From a virus: a stretch of DNA of 24,123 bases. Location of the stretch: IMG/VR virus record IMGVR_UViG_3300005534_000047, positions 1-24,123 of that record; one strand, written 5' to 3'. The notes beneath the pieces are model-generated. The model was given only the letters and a program-made list of their open reading frames with translations, had not been told where the DNA came from and made no database searches. Positions 8,940 to 23,680 of this stretch are shown here, in pieces (position 1 is the stretch's first letter; the number at the start of each line of letters is the position of its first letter). A program made the position numbers and the translations under genes.

Positions 8940-9689
8940 ATGGCCCTCGCGTCGACCACCACGTACAACGCCACCGCGCAGCGCCTGATTGACCTGGCGC
9001 TGATCGACATCGGCGTTGCCGGCCAGGGCGGCAGCCAAGGCGCTGCGGTCGATGCGAACCTGCGCCCGCAAGCGCTGGACCTGCTGAACATCGTGTTGAA
9101 GGAGTTCGACAGCCTGGGCATGCTGACGTTCGACGTGCAGAGACGCACGCAGACGCTCACGGCCGGCGTGGCGTCGTACACGCTGAGCAACGACGTGACC
9201 GACGTTGACGATCCGATGCGGTACACGCAGTCGGGCGCGACGGTCGGCAGCCAGGTCACCATCATGTCGCGCGACGAATACATGTATCAGCCCGACCGGA
9301 CAATTCAGGGGCCGGTGTACCGGTTCTTCCCGGAGAACAGCTTCGACGCGAACGGCATCCAGGTCATCACGTTGAACCTGTTTCCCGTGCCGCCGAACAC
9401 CGGCGATACGCTGGAATACGCCGCCGCCATCCGGGTCAAGGACGTCACCGACTACGGGCAGACGATCGGCGTGCCGCAGAAGTGGCTGAACGCCATCACG
9501 CTGACGCTGGGCGCGCGCCTGGCGCCGAGTTACTCGCTTGGCGTTGATCGGCTCTCGTACCACAACGCGCGCGCGAAAGAGGCGCGTGACCAGGTCATGA
9601 ACGACAACGGCGAGCGCGGTCCGGTGCAGCTCGTGCCATTTGGCCAGACCTACGGCTTCGGCTGGGGCGCCAGAGTTGGATATCGATAA
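8940..9689 (+). CDS. P22 gp4-like head-tail adaptor (tail accessory factor)
   Basis: The protein has 249 residues, larger than P22 gp4. The N-terminal helices (RLIDLALIDIGVAG, then QALDLLNIVLKEFDSLGM) and a following beta segment (RRTQTLTAGVASYTL) match the gp4-like pattern. So do the motif MSRDEYMYQPDRTIQGP, the FPVPPNTGDTLEY strand pair and the QKWLNAITLTLGARLAP helix. In P22 this protein forms a ring under the portal and closes the DNA channel while docking gp10. Its position upstream of the tailspike and gp10-like gene agrees. It starts immediately after the preceding stop. Confidence 0.82.
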   Translation: MALASTTTYNATAQRLIDLALIDIGVAGQGGSQGAAVDANLRPQALDLLNIVLKEFDSLGMLTFDVQRRTQTLTAGVASYTLSNDVTDVDDPMRYTQSGATVGSQVTIMSRDEYMYQPDRTIQGPVYRFFPENSFDANGIQVITLNLFPVPPNTGDTLEYAAAIRVKDVTDYGQTIGVPQKWLNAITLTLGARLAPSYSLGVDRLSYHNARAKEARDQVMNDNGERGPVQLVPFGQTYGFGWGARVGYR

Positions 9690-11255
9690 ATGGCCGCTCA
9701 ACTGCTCGGCGACCTGTTCCTGAACGGCATTGCCGCCGCCAGCTCGGGCACGGCGCGCTTTTACCAGCCGAACACACTGGTTCCCGTGACCGTGTACAGC
9801 GACGACGCCGCTACGCAGGCCATCACGCAGCCGGTGCCTCTGGACGGCTCTGGCAAGTCGATCGTGCCGGTGTACCTCACCGGCCCGGCGCGGATGATCG
9901 TGTATACGTCGAACGGCGCCCAGTATCTCGACGTCACGCGCGTGGATGGCGTTCGCGCTGAGTCGACCGCCCTGTCCAACGCGCTTTGGCCCAGCGTGAG
10001 CAGCCTCGACGCCATGGCCACCGCGCTGGCGACGTCTCTGGGCGGCACGTCGGGCAACTTCAAGGCGAGCGGGACGGGCGCTGTCAATCGCTCCGTGCAG
10101 AGCAAGAACTCAGAGCAGGTGTCGGTGAAGGACTTCGGCGCGGTCGGAAATGGCGTGGCCGATGACACCGGCGCGTTCGTGTCTGCGATCGCATATGCGA
10201 AGGCCCTCGGCGGTGCGGTGATATTCCTCCCGGCCGGGAACTATCTGATCTCGTCCGCGCTGACCCTGAACAATGATGGAGTCTCGCTCAAGGGCACCGG
10301 GAGCCTGACGTCGGTCATTACGCAGTCTAGTTCGACTGCGAACGGAATCATAGTCGCCGGCAATCGGCTGTTTCTTGAGGACATCGGGATCGTCGCCTCA
10401 ACAACGTCGACCGGGATTGGTGTCACGCCAAGCGGGACACTCTCTTTTATTACATTGTCTCGGGTGCGAATCGTCAATTTCGGATATTGCGTCTGGGACA
10501 ACTCGCAGGTGACGACGCGTCTCAATATTCGCGACTGCGAGTTAATCGCCGATCCCGCCCAGGCGCTCGCGTGCATCCGCCTCGCCGTGGCCGCTGCTCC
10601 GACGATAACAAATAACTATATGTCGACTGCCGCTTCTGGCGTGAGCGCCGACGCCATCCTACTGAGCAACTCGACGGCCAACGCGACCATCGTTGGAAAT
10701 TACATAGCCCAGGCGGCCTCTGGCATTGTGCTTCAGGGCGTCAGTGGCGTGGCGATGGTCGGCAACACGTTCGCGTCGGCAGTTACTACTGCCTGGTCCA
10801 TGGACGCCACCACGACATTTGTTACGGACGTCGGAAACACCGTGATCAATCTGTCGACGTCCTATTCCGACAACAGCACGGCCGGATCGAATACGTATGC
10901 GTCGCCGCTTTCTGGGCGCTGGTCGGCAGGGTACACGGGCACATCGACATCGATCGCGGTCACGTCGACATTTACGCCCAACAATCAAAAGTTCAACTAT
11001 CAGCGGTGCGTCGGTACGGCGGGCGGTATCACGATCACGGTAGCCAATCCGACCATCACCCCGCAGCGGTCCGGGCCGTCGCTTTTGCTGTTCCTGGAGA
11101 ACCAGTCGGGCGGCGCTGTGACCTGGTCGTTTGGCTCGCAATACCGCACGTCGGCTGCCGTCAACCCGGGCACAGGCACCGGTATCGCACTGACCTTTGT
11201 TTGGGACCAGGCGGTTACCAAGTGGGTCGAGATGAACCGGAGCGCGGCCGTCTAA
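9690..11255 (+). CDS. Tailspike with pectate-lyase-type beta-helix
   Basis: The product has 521 residues. The N-terminal 100 or so residues look like a virion-attachment domain. Residues 145-188 carry the pectate-lyase superfamily entry motif: VSVKDFGAVGNGVADDT, then a helix and an IFLPAGNYLIS strand. A beta-helix with rungs such as NATIVGNYI and VAMVGNTF follows to about residue 370, and a separate beta-rich C-terminal domain ends the protein. It probably binds and may cleave host surface polysaccharide. Codons around 10330-10700 are richer in A and T (TTT ATT ACA TTG, TTA) than in neighbours, which suggests the helix part was acquired by exchange. The stop overlaps the stop of the opposite-strand gene by four bases. 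Confidence 0.85.
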   Translation: MAAQLLGDLFLNGIAAASSGTARFYQPNTLVPVTVYSDDAATQAITQPVPLDGSGKSIVPVYLTGPARMIVYTSNGAQYLDVTRVDGVRAESTALSNALWPSVSSLDAMATALATSLGGTSGNFKASGTGAVNRSVQSKNSEQVSVKDFGAVGNGVADDTGAFVSAIAYAKALGGAVIFLPAGNYLISSALTLNNDGVSLKGTGSLTSVITQSSSTANGIIVAGNRLFLEDIGIVASTTSTGIGVTPSGTLSFITLSRVRIVNFGYCVWDNSQVTTRLNIRDCELIADPAQALACIRLAVAAAPTITNNYMSTAASGVSADAILLSNSTANATIVGNYIAQAASGIVLQGVSGVAMVGNTFASAVTTAWSMDATTTFVTDVGNTVINLSTSYSDNSTAGSNTYASPLSGRWSAGYTGTSTSIAVTSTFTPNNQKFNYQRCVGTAGGITITVANPTITPQRSGPSLLLFLENQSGGAVTWSFGSQYRTSAAVNPGTGTGIALTFVWDQAVTKWVEMNRSAAV

Positions 11256-11713
11256 TGGTCCAGCGCTTGCCATTCGGCCATGTCGACATCGGTCAAAACG
11301 GGCCTGTTGTAGTGATAGGTTCCCGCCGACGTATTCATCACGGCAGGACCGGCGTCGGTGTGGCGCATTCCAAGCGCGTGGCCGATTTCGTGGGCCACGG
11401 TGGTCTGCAACATCGCTGCATTCTGCGGCCACGCCACGTTAACAGTCGCTTGCAGCGGAAACGTGTACGGGTATTCATGCCCGAGCGCCGCGGAAGGGGA
11501 GTTATCGGCGAAGCCCGTTATCAGCAAATCGGCTTCGCTTCGATCGGCGGCTTGGCTACACGGTACGCCAATGGCAGTCCAGGCCTCGCACCCGCCCGAG
11601 ATTGCCTCACCACTGACCGCACCATCGGACCAGACAGCCACCCGCGCTACCATGGTGCTCTCGGGCTGGCCGCACGCGCCCAGCAGCAACACCCCCAAAA
11701 TCAGCTTCTTCAT
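11252..11713 (-). CDS. Secreted lipoprotein metzincin (matrixin-like) metalloprotease
   Basis: This 153-residue protein is the only full-length minus-strand gene recognised in the window. Residues 1-14 are a lipoprotein signal peptide (MKKLILGVLLLGAC; Cys14 is the lipidation site), with no Asp at +2, so outer-membrane sorting is expected in a Gram-negative cell. The zinc site HEIGHALGMRH (108-118) matches HExxHxxGxxH of metzincins, and PAVMN (Met126) fits the Met-turn. The protein is short for a matrixin and has no clear propeptide. GAAAGGGG lies 8-9 bases before the ATG. Placed alone, antisense and between two tail genes, it looks like a moron expressed from its own promoter. A role in altering the infected cell surface is inference. 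Confidence 0.88.
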   Translation of the reverse strand: MKKLILGVLLLGACGQPESTMVARVAVWSDGAVSGEAISGGCEAWTAIGVPCSQAADRSEADLLITGFADNSPSAALGHEYPYTFPLQATVNVAWPQNAAMLQTTVAHEIGHALGMRHTDAGPAVMNTSAGTYHYNRPVLTDVDMAEWQALDH

Positions 11714-11732
11714 GACGATGCCCCTTTCGTCG

Positions 11733-11769
11733 CCCCGAGGTTAGGCGGGGAAGCCGCCGGGGCGGCGGC
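11733..11769 (-). promoter_or_regulatory. Two tandem GC-rich hairpins in the protease leader
   Basis: CCCCG at 11733-11737 pairs with CGGGG at 11746-11750. GCCGCC at 11753-11758 pairs with GGCGGC at 11764-11769. On the minus-strand transcript both lie just upstream of the ribosome binding site of the protease gene. No T-run follows on either strand, so a simple intrinsic terminator is unlikely. They could shape translation or block read-through from the plus strand. Confidence 0.4.
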
Positions 11770-11858
11770 CGGTCGCCAGGCTCATGACTTCCTGGCTATC
11801 CCCACATGGAAACGTCCCACGCGGCGCGTATTCCCGCAAGTTGACCGCGCGTTCAGTG

Positions 11859-11887
11859 GCTGTACAAGCGTTCACCAGCTATGTAAA
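11859..11887 (-). promoter_or_regulatory. Candidate sigma70-type promoter for the antisense protease
   Basis: Read on the minus strand, TTTACA (5 of 6 matches to the -35 consensus) is followed after 17 bases by TACAGC (about 3 of 6 to the -10). It sits about 150 bases before the protease ATG and is the best match in the divergent gap 11714-11909. No equally good plus-strand promoter was seen for the gp10-like gene. The -10 is weak, so this is a candidate only. Confidence 0.25.
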
Positions 11888-11909
11888 CTTTGCATAGGGC
11901 ACGACATCG

Positions 11910-13415
11910 ATGTCAGAGTCGACGATTCCTATTGACGAGGGCCAAAAGGCGAGTGCGAACGACTCGCCGGGCGCCGCACGCCTGACGATCAACTGGATGG
12001 TCGATAGCAACGACACCGTCACGCTGCGCCCCGGTATCACGAACAAGACGCTGGACCCGGGCACGTACACCCGCACGACCGGAACGAACACCGGCATCAT
12101 CGGCGCGTACGTCTGGCGGTCAGTCTTCAACTCGCGCGACTACCTGGTGTACGTCCGCCAGGACCGCACGATCTGGGCGAAGGACTTGGTAACAAACGTC
12201 GTTTCGGCGCTGTCCGACACGACGACGCCGACGCATCTCGACGGCTCGGCGACGGTGGCGATCTTCGCCGAAGACTCGCAGCGGCTGGTGATTGCCGGCG
12301 GCGGGCAGCTCCAGGTGTGGTCCGGCAACGTCGCCACGCTCACGGCCCGCATCGCGGCGACCGTGTTCGGCAGCAACCAGCCGCCGCTGAGCGCGACTCA
12401 CGTCGTCAACCTGACGAACTATTTGGTGGCGAATCAGGCGGCGCTGCCGGGGACGAACAATCAGATCATCTGGTCGGGGCTGGGCGACTCGAATCACACG
12501 ACGTGGAATCCGCTGAACTTCAACACCGCCGACGCAGATCCCGATCCTGTCGTCGCCATCGCCGCCAACCTGCGCGAGGTGTTCGTATTCGGCACGAAGA
12601 CCGTGCAGGCGTTCGGCGTCGGCTCTGACCCGACGCTGCCGTTTTCGGCGTCGGCGTCGCTGGCGGTCGGCTGCGTAGCGCCGTACTCGGTGATTCAGAT
12701 CGACGGCCAGTTCGCCTGGATGGACGCCGCGCGCCGGTTCATGGTCAGCGACGCGCGCTATCAGACGCACATCAGTCAGGACGTCGACAAGCTGCTGCGT
12801 GACTTCGGCACGGTCAGCGACGGCTTTGGCTTCCGCCTGCGCATCGGCTACTGGGATTTGCTCACCTGGGTTTTCCCGACCGAGGGCAAGACGTACGCGT
12901 ACGACCAGGCCAAGAAAAGCTGGTGGCAGTGGCGCGGCTGGAACGGCATCGACGACTACTCGGCGATCCGAATTGCGGCGTATGCGTACTGGGCCGCCGG
13001 GAACATGCACATCGTCGGCGATCCTCTGTTCGAAAACCTCTGGACGCTCGACGTCAACGCGAAGTCTGACATCGGGCCGAACCTGCCGATCGTCGCCGAA
13101 CGCGTGACCAACCGCCTCGACCAGGACACCAGCGCCCGCAAGCGCTGCCAGAAGGTACGTTTCCTGCTCAAACGCGGCACGACGGCGCAGCCGGCGACGC
13201 TGCCGGCGTATCTCGACCTGGCGAAGAAGGACGACGATTCCGATTGGTCGGTGTCGCAGCAGATCGACCTTGGGATCGCGGGCGACAACAGCTCGCACAA
13301 GGACTGGTTTCCCGGCGGCATCTACCGGCGCCGTCAGTATCGCGTCCGCTTCTCGGGCGGCGTCGATGTCGCGCTCACGAAGATGACCGAGTTTTGGGAG
13401 CCGCTCAGCGGCTGA
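11910..13415 (+). CDS. P22 gp10-like tail hub / packaged-DNA stabilisation protein
   Basis: The protein has 501 residues, close to P22 gp10. Diagnostic blocks are a receptor-like N-terminal strand region (DTVTLRPGI), YLVYVRQDRTIWA, the segment IWSGLGDSNHTTWNPLNF, the block VVAIAANLREVFVFGTKTVQAF (214-235) and VGCVAPYSVIQIDGQFAWMD (253-272). In P22 this protein forms the hexameric knob that bridges the gp4 ring to the tail needle and keeps DNA in the head. AGGG lies about 10 bases before the ATG. The antisense protease gene separates it from the tailspike, so its transcript either reads through that gene or begins in the 11714-11909 gap. Confidence 0.82.
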   Translation: MSESTIPIDEGQKASANDSPGAARLTINWMVDSNDTVTLRPGITNKTLDPGTYTRTTGTNTGIIGAYVWRSVFNSRDYLVYVRQDRTIWAKDLVTNVVSALSDTTTPTHLDGSATVAIFAEDSQRLVIAGGGQLQVWSGNVATLTARIAATVFGSNQPPLSATHVVNLTNYLVANQAALPGTNNQIIWSGLGDSNHTTWNPLNFNTADADPDPVVAIAANLREVFVFGTKTVQAFGVGSDPTLPFSASASLAVGCVAPYSVIQIDGQFAWMDAARRFMVSDARYQTHISQDVDKLLRDFGTVSDGFGFRLRIGYWDLLTWVFPTEGKTYAYDQAKKSWWQWRGWNGIDDYSAIRIAAYAYWAAGNMHIVGDPLFENLWTLDVNAKSDIGPNLPIVAERVTNRLDQDTSARKRCQKVRFLLKRGTTAQPATLPAYLDLAKKDDDSDWSVSQQIDLGIAGDNSSHKDWFPGGIYRRRQYRVRFSGGVDVALTKMTEFWEPLSG

Positions 13416-20532: not shown

Positions 20533-21345
20533 ATGTCGACGTACCAGAAATTCCCGTCATCGGTCACGGCACCGACGCATTACACCAACTCCCCATCGTC
20601 TGTGTTCGTGCCGCTGACGAACTACACGAACCTGCCGGCGGTCGGTGCGCCTCCCGGAACGGCGTCCGCTTGGCTCGACGGGCAAGACATCAACCTGTCC
20701 GGCAACGCCGGCATCAACGACACCGACCCGATCGGAACCTGGAAAAACAAGGGCAGTCGAGGATCGGCGCTCGACGTGCTCCAAGCCGTCGGCGCAAACA
20801 AGCCGCTGTTCGCCAAGGTCGCATCGGCCGGCAAGATCAACAACCTCTCCGCCGTGCGGTTCAACGGTACGTCAACGTTCATGCGGTCGGCGACCATTTC
20901 CGACGCCGCGCAGCCCAACATATTTGCCATCGTCGCCATGTCGACCGTTGTCAACGACGCGACCAACAGAGTCGTGGTCGACGGCGCGGTCAACGCGAAG
21001 TTTCACGAAATCTACAAGAGCACCACCGGCCTGATTTCGATGTACGGCGGCAATGCGCTGTCATCCGCCGTCAACTGGCAGGCGAACAAATACAGCCAGC
21101 TCAACGCGACATTCAACGGCGCCTCGTCAATCCTCCACGCCGACAAGACGAGTATCGCCAGCGGCAACGCCGGGACAAACGTGATTAGCGGCATCACCGT
21201 CGGGAGCGACGCTGTCAGCGCCGAGTTCTGGTCGGGAGACATCGTCGAGGTTCTGCTCTACCTGTCGGCCGATGCCGCACTCCCGACGCTCGCGAGCATC
21301 GAGGCTTACTTCGACGCGAAATACGGGTCGTCATGGCCCCAGTGA
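20533..21345 (+). CDS. Concanavalin-like (LamG-type) lectin-fold virion protein
   Basis: The protein has 270 residues. After a 40-residue Thr/Pro-rich N-terminus, residues about 45-265 follow a concanavalin A-like/LamG pattern: AWLDGQDINLS, then IGTWKNKGSRGSALD, KINNLSAVRFNGTSTFMRS, IFAIVAMSTVVND, a long mid-section, and the closing strand-helix EFWSGDIVEVLLYLS plus a helix with IEAYFDAKYG. Domains of this kind often bind carbohydrate in phage tail or capsid proteins. Receptor binding or surface attachment is plausible but unproven. Confidence 0.65.
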   Translation: MSTYQKFPSSVTAPTHYTNSPSSVFVPLTNYTNLPAVGAPPGTASAWLDGQDINLSGNAGINDTDPIGTWKNKGSRGSALDVLQAVGANKPLFAKVASAGKINNLSAVRFNGTSTFMRSATISDAAQPNIFAIVAMSTVVNDATNRVVVDGAVNAKFHEIYKSTTGLISMYGGNALSSAVNWQANKYSQLNATFNGASSILHADKTSIASGNAGTNVISGITVGSDAVSAEFWSGDIVEVLLYLSADAALPTLASIEAYFDAKYGSSWPQ

Positions 21346-21838: not shown

Positions 21839-22083
21839 GCAGCACCGAAGACACCCCCGTTGAAATCCCCACCGCCACCCTGTCCGCCAACCGGCCGATC
21901 GTGATGGCCGTGCTGAATGCGGCGACCGCCCTGCGCGGGACCTGCGACCGCCTTGCGGCCATCGGCCATGATGTCCGCGTGGCAACCGAGCCCGTTGCGT
22001 CGGCGACATTGCATCGGCTGGCGGACGCGTTCGCCGAGATCAAAACCATCGGCGAGACCGCCGAAAAGGAGATTCGACCATGA
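21835..22083 (+). CDS. Small helical unknown protein of the lysis block
   Basis: This encodes 82 residues from a GTG start preceded by GGAGG. The protein is acidic at the start and then helical (IVMAVLNAATALRGTCDRLA, then ATLHRLADAFAEIKTIG). No transmembrane segment or motif is seen. It overlaps its neighbours by four bases at each end and shares their transcript, so a link to lysis or virion assembly is only positional. Confidence 0.58.
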   Translation: MSSTEDTPVEIPTATLSANRPIVMAVLNAATALRGTCDRLAAIGHDVRVATEPVASATLHRLADAFAEIKTIGETAEKEIRP

Positions 22084-22547
22084 AGCGCGCGATCAACGTC
22101 ATCGGGATCCTGCTCGCCGTCGCCAGCGGAATCCTGGCCGAAGTGTCGAAGGATACCCACTGGGCGCACGCCGGCATCGCGATCGCGCTGGTGACGAACC
22201 TGCGCACGGCACTCGTTGGCCTGGGCGGCGGCGGGACTGCCGTCATGCTGCTGGCGGCGGCGCTAGGTGCGGGCTCGTGCGCGCACGTCAACCCCGTGGT
22301 CGTCGACTGCGCCAAGGAAGTCTCTCCCGACATCCTGCCGGCGGTGGAGTCGGCGCTGGTGGCGGACGACTGGGCGACGCAGTTGGCGGCGCTGGTGCCG
22401 AAGTTCGGCTTGTGCGTCGTCAACAAGGCCATCGCCCAGATCATGGGCGAAGCGATGCAGGACAAGTCGTTCGCGAGCGGCGATAGCCTGGCGGTGCTCA
22501 AGGTCGACCACGGCAACGCCTGGCTCGCCGCGCACCCGGTGCAGTAG
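22080..22547 (+). CDS. Multi-span membrane protein with embedded lipoprotein-like half
   Basis: The protein has 155 residues. The first 50 hold two hydrophobic segments (VIGILLAVASGILAEV, AGIAIALVTNLRTAL), like a small holin. A third hydrophobic stretch, MLLAAALGAGSCAHVN, looks like an independent lipoprotein signal leading to a soluble helical domain with Cys residues (VVVDCAKEV, then FGLCVVNKAI). An in-frame ATG at 22245 begins exactly at that signal, so a second short product is possible. The residues before the Cys (AGS) are a poor lipobox. It may be a fusion of a holin-like and a lipoprotein gene, or a lysis accessory protein. Confidence 0.6.
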   Translation: MKRAINVIGILLAVASGILAEVSKDTHWAHAGIAIALVTNLRTALVGLGGGGTAVMLLAAALGAGSCAHVNPVVVDCAKEVSPDILPAVESALVADDWATQLAALVPKFGLCVVNKAIAQIMGEAMQDKSFASGDSLAVLKVDHGNAWLAAHPVQ

Positions 22548-23231
22548 ATGGAGATCGCTTGCCAGATGAACAGCCGCGTTCTGTCGGACGCGGATTTCGC
22601 GTTCCAGGCGCGCGCTGTCAACCAGCAGATGGAGCAGCACTGGGCGCCGGCCTATGAGGATGAGCCCTGGCCGGTGCGCTCATATGCGACGCTGCAAGGA
22701 TTGCCGGCCGGTACCTTCTGGCCGATCGCGATCCTGGACGACATCGACAAGCCGGGCGCGGCTGGCTTTCACGACGACGTCGCGGGGCTCGTCTTCGGCC
22801 GCGTCCAGGCGAACGCCGACCCGACCGACGCGACAACGCTGTCGCATGAGGCGCTGGAGCTGCGCGGCGACCCGACGTGCGACGTCTGGCTACCGATGCC
22901 CGACGGCCGCCAGGCCGCGAGAGAGCTGTGCGATCCGTGCGAGACGGACCGGTACCAGATCGAGGTGACGATCGGTGCCGAGGCGCGGCGAATCTGGGTG
23001 TCTGACTTCGTGCTGCCAGCCTGGTTCGTGCCAGGCGCGCCCGGGCCTTACACATACCTGGACACCGTCGACGCGCCATTCGGCCTGAGCCGCTCGGGCG
23101 GCGGCTACCGACTGATCCGAGACAAGTACGGCGCCATCAGCAGCGACTTCGGGCGTCTGGTCACGCGCGAACACATGGGCCGCAAGCTGCAAAACCCGAT
23201 GTCGCGGACGTACCGCAGGGGGTTACGCTAA
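22548..23231 (+). CDS. Zincin-like protein of the lysis region
   Basis: The protein has 227 residues from the ATG at 22548; ATG 22566 is an alternative. A helical N-terminus leads to the strand AGTFWPIAILDDIDKPGAAG and then the motif SHEALELRGDP (99-109), an HExxE-x3-D pattern of the zincin type. I recall similar SHExLExxxDP segments in phage proteins of unknown role. A second half with beta segments (RRIWVSDFVLPAWFV) follows. If catalytic, H100 and E101 would be key. The third zinc ligand is uncertain. It sits directly upstream of the endolysin, so a virion or lysis peptidase role is possible. Confidence 0.55.
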   Translation: MEIACQMNSRVLSDADFAFQARAVNQQMEQHWAPAYEDEPWPVRSYATLQGLPAGTFWPIAILDDIDKPGAAGFHDDVAGLVFGRVQANADPTDATTLSHEALELRGDPTCDVWLPMPDGRQAARELCDPCETDRYQIEVTIGAEARRIWVSDFVLPAWFVPGAPGPYTYLDTVDAPFGLSRSGGGYRLIRDKYGAISSDFGRLVTREHMGRKLQNPMSRTYRRGLR

Positions 23232-23680
23232 TGCCGCTCATTTCGACGCACTTTGGCTACTCCGAGTTCGCATGTCACACGGGCGCGCCGTACCCGCCCG
23301 AGTGGATCGACGAGCGCCTCCAGCCGCTATGCACCACGCTGGACGCAATCCGCGAACGCTGGGGCGGTCCGATCGTGGTCGTCTGCGGCTACCGGACGCC
23401 CGAGTACAACGAGCAGCTGCGCGCGCGCTCAAGCGGCGTGGCGGCGAACAGCCAGCACCCGCAGGGTCGGGCGGCCGACGTCGGGCCGGTGCCAAGGACG
23501 CCCGAAAACGTGCGCCGGCTGGCGGCCATCGTCGACGGCATGATTCAGGGGGGCGAGCTGCCGCTGCTGGGCGGCTTCGGAAAGTACAGTGGTTGGATTC
23601 ACGTTGACTGCCGACCGAAGCCGGACGACGGCCATGTCGCACGATGGGACGGACAAGGGTTCGGTAGCGAGCCCGTCTGA
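23231..23680 (+). CDS. M15-family peptidase endolysin
   Basis: The protein has 149 residues, typical for a single-domain M15 peptidoglycan peptidase (D-Ala-D-Ala/L-Ala-D-Glu type). The zinc-binding motif SQHPQGRAADV gives His76 and Asp83, and WIHVD gives His124 with Asp126. The YRTPEYNEQLRAR segment before the first ligand is also family-like. There is no N-terminal signal or cell-wall-binding domain, so export would depend on a holin. It should cut peptide cross-links of the wall to free progeny. The start overlaps the preceding stop (TAATG). Confidence 0.88.
   Translation: MPLISTHFGYSEFACHTGAPYPPEWIDERLQPLCTTLDAIRERWGGPIVVVCGYRTPEYNEQLRARSSGVAANSQHPQGRAADVGPVPRTPENVRRLAAIVDGMIQGGELPLLGGFGKYSGWIHVDCRPKPDDGHVARWDGQGFGSEPV

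What the first reader, a model, noticed from the sequence alone, without database searches (positions are those of the whole stretch)
11252..11909. Antisense lipoprotein metzincin inserted in the tail operon
A complete secreted protease gene with lipobox, HExxHxxGxxH and a Met-turn lies antisense between tailspike and hub genes, with its own leader and a candidate promoter. This is the hallmark of a moron expressed when late genes are silent. A surface-anchored phage protease could change host surface proteins, exclude other phages or affect host behaviour. I know of no standard phage role for a matrixin-like lipoprotein.
Basis: partly seen in the sequence, partly recalled or inferred. Interest (0 to 1): 0.72.

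Follow-up and report, generated by a model that had tools for sequence, protein, structure and literature searches.

The report
Antisense surface-protease gene beside phage spike
A soil-type phage carries, on the opposite strand right next to the gene for its host-binding spike, a gene for a small protease predicted to be anchored in the host's outer membrane; related phages keep other surface proteins in the same spot, so it is probably an exchangeable anti-rival or lysis tool matched to the spike.

Summary
A 153-aa ORF (11252-11713, minus) encodes a matrixin-type metzincin (Pfam M10 above cutoff; HEIGHALGMRH, Met-turn) with a short lipoprotein signal. Its stop overlaps the spike stop; the downstream neighbour is a head-closure Hc3 protein, not a hub.

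The larger finding is the slot. In relatives the spike-Hc3 junction is empty (G007, G009, L106/L107, L112, L113) or holds a different antisense lipoprotein: an unrelated 141-148-aa family (L006, L007; dN/dS 0.32) or an HExxH protein with its own consensus sigma70 promoter (G008). All four antisense occupants have lipoboxes, against 2 of 393 other antisense ORFs. In the closest pair (G008/G009) the spike's receptor-binding half and the antisense gene change as one block. The window shares with L006/L007 a promoter-like motif and a structured antisense leader.

This matches T5 llp, T1 cor and Rtp rtp45: superinfection-exclusion lipoproteins next to, and antisense to, the receptor-binding protein gene. 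Best reading: a receptor-linked exclusion lipoprotein that cleaves rather than blocks (0.45). Main rival: lysis accessory, since G008/G009 carry another lipoprotein metzincin beside the endolysin. A lysogenic role is unsupported. New variant of a known kind.

The parts
11252..11713 (-). Metzincin lipoprotein gene, 153 aa
   Evidence: ORF, Pfam Peptidase_M10 above curated cutoff
11672..11713 (-). Short lipoprotein signal peptide with lipobox LLGAC (Cys14, +2 Gly)
   Evidence: sequence; pattern test. Outer-membrane sorting is inferred from the E. coli +2 rule
11360..11392 (-). Zinc site HEIGHALGMRH (residues 108-118)
11336..11338 (-). Met-turn methionine 126 (PAVMN)
   Evidence: sequence; aligns with the matrixin C-terminal part
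11721..11728 (-). Shine-Dalgarno-like GAAAGGGG, 7 nt before ATG
   Evidence: sequence
11745..11805 (-). 61-nt three-way-junction leader RNA; same fold on the antisense strand in L006 and L007 with compensatory changes in the outer stem
11811..11840 (-). Promoter-like two-block motif CTTGCGGGAA-N14-GACGTT (TTGCGG-17-GACGTT), exact in L006 and L007 with diverged spacer; 5 nt before the leader structure
   Evidence: no match to the sigma70 consensus, so promoter function is inferred
9690..11255 (+). Tailspike (pectate-lyase-like); residues 1-165 conserved, the rest exchanged together with the slot
11910..13415 (+). Head closure Hc3, right flank of the slot
   Evidence: phrog_578 E 1e-34
8940..9689 (+). 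SU10-type adaptor, left of the spike; its junction with the spike is a second insertion point in L114 and L095
   Evidence: PF24175

Best explanation
The gene is the current cargo of an exchangeable antisense slot that belongs to the phage's host-recognition module. It is made from its own leader, opposite to the late operon, exported as a lipoprotein, probably to the outer membrane, and acts there as a zinc endopeptidase. The most likely role is superinfection exclusion of the Llp/Cor/Rtp45 kind: it removes the receptor used by the neighbouring spike (or a protein that presents it) from the surface of the infected cell and debris, by cutting it instead of plugging it. Shown: the ORF, its family and motif, the lipobox, the slot with different cargoes or none, joint exchange with the spike domain in one sister pair, selection on a homologous cargo family, and a conserved antisense leader. 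Inferred: promoter activity, localisation, catalysis, substrate and the exclusion phenotype.
For: Slot survey: spike-Hc3 junction empty in G007, G009, L106/L107, L112, L113; filled antisense in the window, L006, L007 and G008. Of 397 antisense ORFs of at least 95 codons in 12 loci, 6 carry a lipobox and 4 of these are the 4 antisense slot genes (hypergeometric 1.5e-8, or 1e-6 counting L006/L007 once). L006/L007 cargo dN/dS 0.32. G008 cargo has TTGACA-17-TACCAT just before its ATG. G008 against G009: spike N-terminus 93% identical, middle 28%; DNA similarity stops inside the spike and resumes 12 nt beyond the antisense promoter. Conserved motif and leader in the window, L006 and L007. Precedents with the same anatomy: T5 oad/llp, T1 cor, Rtp rtp43/rtp45, each with the exclusion lipoprotein on the strand opposite to the receptor-binding or tail-tip gene, with demonstrated exclusion (PMC9586334, PMC12685063) and joint exchange of RBP and a non-homologous lipoprotein between T5 and BF23 (PMC4728585).
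Against: Known exclusion lipoproteins are about 75 aa and block; none known to me is a protease, and no paper found describes one. The host and the receptor are unknown; the spike looks like a polysaccharide lyase, so the primary receptor may be a glycan that a protease cannot cut. Related phages carry another lipoprotein metzincin in the lysis cassette, which favours a lysis role. The L006/L007 cargo has no enzyme signature. The signal peptide is short (Cys14). No expression data.
Confidence: 0.45

Rival explanations
1. Accessory lysis protein: an outer-membrane-anchored metzincin that weakens the envelope by cutting tethering or cell-wall proteins, helping release of virions. It sits in the antisense slot here but in the lysis cassette in relatives.
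For: G009 (L101 6381-6905, +) and G008 encode a different lipoprotein metzincin (MTRLILAVLLLASC...HELGHVLGLGH, M10 28.5 bits) just downstream of a GH24 lysozyme and upstream of an Rz-like gene. In Listeria a phage-derived metzincin with a TIMP-like lipoprotein sensitises cells to phage lysins, and prophage copies lie downstream of holin and lysin (PMC8235301).
Against: The window gene is antisense, far from its own endolysin (23231-23680), and shares the slot with non-enzymatic lipoproteins. The two metzincins are only remotely alike. Lysis genes are normally late, and this gene opposes late transcription.
Confidence: 0.27
2. Lysogenic conversion moron: expressed in the dormant state to change the host surface or behaviour.
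For: Own leader, presence/absence, low codon-usage score.
Against: No integrase of the tyrosine type and no CI-like HTH_3 above cutoff in the window or relatives; only a small resolvase in G008/G009. The window itself is an incomplete genome, so temperate genes may be missing from it.
Confidence: 0.13
3. Receptor blocker that merely uses a matrixin scaffold; catalysis irrelevant.
For: Other slot cargoes (L006/L007) show no enzyme motif, so binding may be the shared property.
Against: All zinc ligands, the catalytic Glu and the Met-turn are kept, and the G008 cargo also has an HExxH motif.
Confidence: 0.1
4. Antisense background: a chance ORF in a spacer.
For: Coding score is low for this phage.
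Against: Pfam match above the curated cutoff, lipobox, SD, best of six frames, homologous-slot genes under purifying selection.
Confidence: 0.02

Closest known systems
Exclusion lipoproteins Llp (T5, BF23), Cor (T1), Rtp45 (Rtp)
   Same: Small lipoprotein gene next to the receptor-binding or tail-tip gene and on the opposite strand; in T5 with an annotated promoter; exchanged with the RBP between T5 and BF23 (PMC4728585)
   Different: Those are about 75-aa non-enzymatic blockers; this cargo is a 153-aa matrixin, and no sequence similarity was shown. Here the slot is between a podophage-type spike and Hc3
Listeria phage-derived Mtz/Tim pair (PMC8235301)
   Same: Phage-linked exported metzincin
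   Different: Mtz is secreted and paired with a TIMP-like lipoprotein, near holin/lysin; here the protease itself carries the lipobox, has no partner gene beside it and sits by the spike
Matrixins, Pfam PF00413 / MEROPS M10 (e.g. karilysin, MMP-20)
   Same: HExxHxxGxxH, Met-turn, C-terminal helix region; PF00413 above cutoff; best PDB hit MMP-20 E 0.001
   Different: No propeptide or cysteine switch seen; very short; lipidated; phage-encoded
Lysis-cassette lipoprotein metzincin of G008/G009 (this work)
   Same: M10-type, MxxLILxVLLLxxC signal, same phage clade
   Different: Sense strand, beside lysozyme and Rz-like genes; only 33% identity over the 45-aa zinc region

Membership tests
Metzincin / matrixin (M10) | HExxHxxGxxH zinc site | tested here: met
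   HEIGHALGMRH, residues 108-118
Metzincin / matrixin (M10) | Family profile score above the curated cutoff | tested here: met
   PF00413 31.8 bits against 24; 31.1 bits in the genome search
Metzincin / matrixin (M10) | Met-turn methionine below the zinc site | tested here: met
   Met126 in PAVMN, by sequence only
Metzincin / matrixin (M10) | Metzincin fold | tested here: inconclusive
   Single-sequence AlphaFold model unusable, pLDDT 39.9
Bacterial lipoprotein | Signal peptide with lipobox and cysteine | tested here: met
   LLGAC, Cys14; one residue shorter than the usual PROSITE limit of 15
Bacterial lipoprotein | Acylation and outer-membrane location | not testable with these tools
   +2 Gly fits outer-membrane sorting by the E. 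coli rule
RBP-linked superinfection-exclusion lipoprotein (Llp/Cor/Rtp45 kind) | Lipoprotein gene beside and antisense to the receptor-binding protein gene | tested here: met
   Window and G008, L006, L007; compared with T5, T1 and Rtp annotations
RBP-linked superinfection-exclusion lipoprotein (Llp/Cor/Rtp45 kind) | Own promoter | tested here: inconclusive
   Consensus sigma70 site in G008; only an unclassified conserved motif in the window
RBP-linked superinfection-exclusion lipoprotein (Llp/Cor/Rtp45 kind) | Sequence homology to Llp/Cor/Rtp45 | not tested
   No direct comparison made; no PHROG matched. Llp proteins of T5 and BF23 are themselves non-homologous (PMC4728585)
RBP-linked superinfection-exclusion lipoprotein (Llp/Cor/Rtp45 kind) | Blocks or removes the receptor and excludes phage | not testable with these tools
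   Needs an infection assay
Listeria Mtz/Tim lysis-sensitising pair | Adjacent TIMP-like partner gene | tested here: not met
   No second gene in the 654-nt slot
Listeria Mtz/Tim lysis-sensitising pair | Location beside holin/lysin | tested here: not met
   Between spike and Hc3; met instead by the G008/G009 metzincin
Lysogenic conversion moron | Carried by a temperate phage | tested here: inconclusive
   No tyrosine integrase or CI-like repressor found; small resolvase in two relatives

The most novel reading that the evidence does not exclude
A phage receptor-destroying enzyme: an outer-membrane-anchored metzincin that proteolytically removes the phage's own receptor from infected cells and debris, encoded antisense in an exchangeable host-recognition module so that protease and spike specificity travel together.
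Probability: 0.35. Interest if true: 0.85.

Novelty: new variant of a known kind. Interest (0 to 1): 0.62.

Why it matters
Exclusion lipoproteins beside receptor-binding genes are known from a few coliphages, as small blockers. A slot that keeps lipoproteins of at least three unrelated kinds, two with zinc-peptidase motifs, next to and antisense to the spike in uncultured soil-type phages would show that the arrangement is general, that it can be used to discover exclusion factors by position alone, and that some phages may destroy their receptor enzymatically. The substrate of the protease would also point to the receptor of the neighbouring spike.

Tried and rejected
Homologues of the window metzincin: no good match in named phages (the only hit, in an Acinetobacter record, is in a bacterial chromosome fragment with dnaK, purK and mpl). 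The Streptomyces hits are AbsR1-like HEHQSP metzincins, only 28-40% identical over the zinc region, and do not identify a donor. PHROGs, NCBIfam equivalogs: none above cutoff. Rfam: nothing in the leader. AlphaFold on single sequences for the window protein and the G008 cargo failed (pLDDT 40 and 42), so no fold search was made. Sigma70 scan at the window, L006 and L007 loci: none. The EcfG-type reading (GGAA...CGTT) was considered and dropped because the spacing is off and the host is unknown. Searching bacterial genomes for a host by phylum was not possible. The leader may serve Hc3 instead: the plus strand of the window folds less well and differently (z -1.2 against -2.8), but L006/L007 plus strands also fold well, so strand assignment is favoured, not proven.

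Full report
What is there. The window is a whole 24,123-base viral contig carrying portal, capsid, adaptor, spike, head-closure and downstream late genes, all on the plus strand. On the minus strand, between spike (9690-11255) and Hc3 (11910-13415), lies an ORF of 153 codons (11252-11713). It has one possible start, a Shine-Dalgarno-like GAAAGGGG, a lipoprotein signal MKKLILGVLLLGAC, the zinc site HEIGHALGMRH and a Met-turn methionine. Pfam Peptidase_M10 scores 31.8 bits against a cutoff of 24; the best PDB sequence hit is MMP-20 at E 0.001. The stops of spike and protease overlap. The neighbour called a hub is a head-closure Hc3 homologue (phrog_578, E 1e-34). The codon score in the protease frame is the best of the six frames but below that of every structural gene used for training, as expected for acquired DNA.

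Relatives. Searches with Hc3, capsid and adaptor proteins gave about ten distinct related phages. At the spike-Hc3 junction, five have spike stop and Hc3 start touching or 80 nt apart (G007/L095, G009/L100, L106/L107, L112, L113). L114 has 121 nt and no gene there. L110 has a plus-strand ORF. Three besides the window have an antisense gene: L007 (7436-7861) and L006 (4789-5235) share a 141-148-aa lipoprotein family of no known domain (49% identical), and G008/L096 (18164-18631) has a 155-aa protein with a signal ending in VSC and a HEFAH motif (Peptidase_Mx1 only as a non-significant hint). L114 has an antisense lipoprotein-like gene (MRALFCFSVMYLMGCGG..., 2538-2834) at the neighbouring adaptor-spike junction, and L095 an antisense HNH endonuclease there.

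Is the lipoprotein theme more than chance? Among 397 antisense ORFs of at least 95 codons in 12 loci, 6 have a lipobox start, and 4 of the 6 are exactly the 4 antisense slot genes. The hypergeometric probability is 1.5e-8, or about 1e-6 if L006/L007 count once. The pattern was mine and allowed Cys at position 14, so this is a post hoc test. The L006/L007 pair gives dN 0.46 and dS 1.44, ratio 0.32, so these are maintained genes.

Exchange with the spike. Window against L006 or L007: DNA similarity stops inside the spike near 10,141-10,186 and resumes at 11,925 in Hc3; between them the blastn comparison with L006 finds only short matches, the largest being 11810-11858, which holds the promoter-like motif. 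In G008 against its sister G009, spike residues 1-165 are 93% identical, the middle 28%; DNA similarity (83%) stops inside the spike and resumes (90%) 12 nt beyond the antisense -35 box. In that pair the antisense gene is present in one and absent in the other within a single replaced block. This is one clean pair, not a statistical test.

Own expression. In G008 the antisense gene has TTGACA-17-TACCAT ending 7 nt before the ATG (0.1 such sites expected in shuffles). In the window, L006 and L007 there is no sigma70 match, but CTTGCGGGAA-N14-GACGTT is exactly conserved with a diverged spacer and is not repeated exactly elsewhere in the parts searched. Five or six bases downstream begins a 61-62-nt element that folds on the antisense strand into the same three-way junction in all three, z -2.8, -4.1 and -3.0. 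The outer stem is fully paired with three double compensatory changes. With only three sequences this is suggestive. I read it as a structured 5' end of the antisense mRNA; that is inference.

A second metzincin. G008 and G009 encode another lipoprotein metzincin on the plus strand, between a GH24 lysozyme and an Rz-like gene (the Rz match is weak, E 0.36). It is only remotely similar to the window protein. Lipoprotein metzincins thus occur twice in this clade, once in a lysis context. Listeria prophages also place a metzincin downstream of holin and lysin, where it sensitises cells to lysis (PMC8235301). This is the main rival.

Closest known arrangement. In Rtp, the exclusion lipoprotein rtp45 (with rtp44) lies directly after and antisense to the J-like tail gene rtp43. 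In T5, llp lies beside and opposite to oad, with an annotated promoter. In T1, cor lies opposite to the tail genes, two genes after the J-like tail gene. Llp and Rtp45 are shown to prevent RBP binding (PMC9586334, PMC12685063), and T5 and BF23 exchange RBP and a non-homologous Llp as a module (PMC4728585). The window has this anatomy with a protease as cargo.

Lifestyle. No tyrosine integrase or CI-like HTH_3 above cutoff was found in the window or four relatives; G008/G009 have a resolvase-type recombinase. G008 has a 110-nt exact terminal repeat, so absence there is informative; the window and G001 are fragments.

Verdict. The gene and its slot are real. The slot is a known kind of arrangement in a new phage group; the metzincin is a new variant of cargo. 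Receptor-cleaving exclusion is my best explanation at 0.45, lysis help at 0.27. Host, substrate and expression remain unknown.

Noticed in passing
L110:6074-6140 and L118:2712-2790: The spike ORFs of two relatives carry an in-frame N-terminal lipoprotein signal (MKKLVCLLVAVIAFTSC... and MRALTSIAIAILLYSAC...) ahead of the usual spike start: possible lipid-anchored spike forms.
   Followed up: partly
L101:6381-6905 and G008 contig ends: A second, sense-strand lipoprotein metzincin in the lysis cassette between GH24 lysozyme and an Rz-like gene.
   Followed up: partly
L095:15630-16151: Antisense HNH endonuclease at the adaptor-spike junction, with AT-richer composition than the phage; likely a homing element.
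   Followed up: partly
L114:2538-2834: Small antisense lipoprotein-like gene at the adaptor-spike junction; misses the strict lipobox pattern.
   Followed up: partly
window 20637-20728 (-): ARAGORN reports a tRNA-Ile inside and antisense to a late gene; no support from Rfam at gathering score, so probably spurious.
   Followed up: partly
window 22080-22547: ORF with two N-terminal hydrophobic stretches and an internal MLLAAALGAGSC, resembling a holin and an overlapping lipoprotein (o-spanin-like) start, two genes before the M15 endolysin.
   Followed up: no
L110:7610-7915 (+): The same slot is filled by a sense-strand 101-aa single-TM, coiled-coil-like protein in L110.
   Followed up: no
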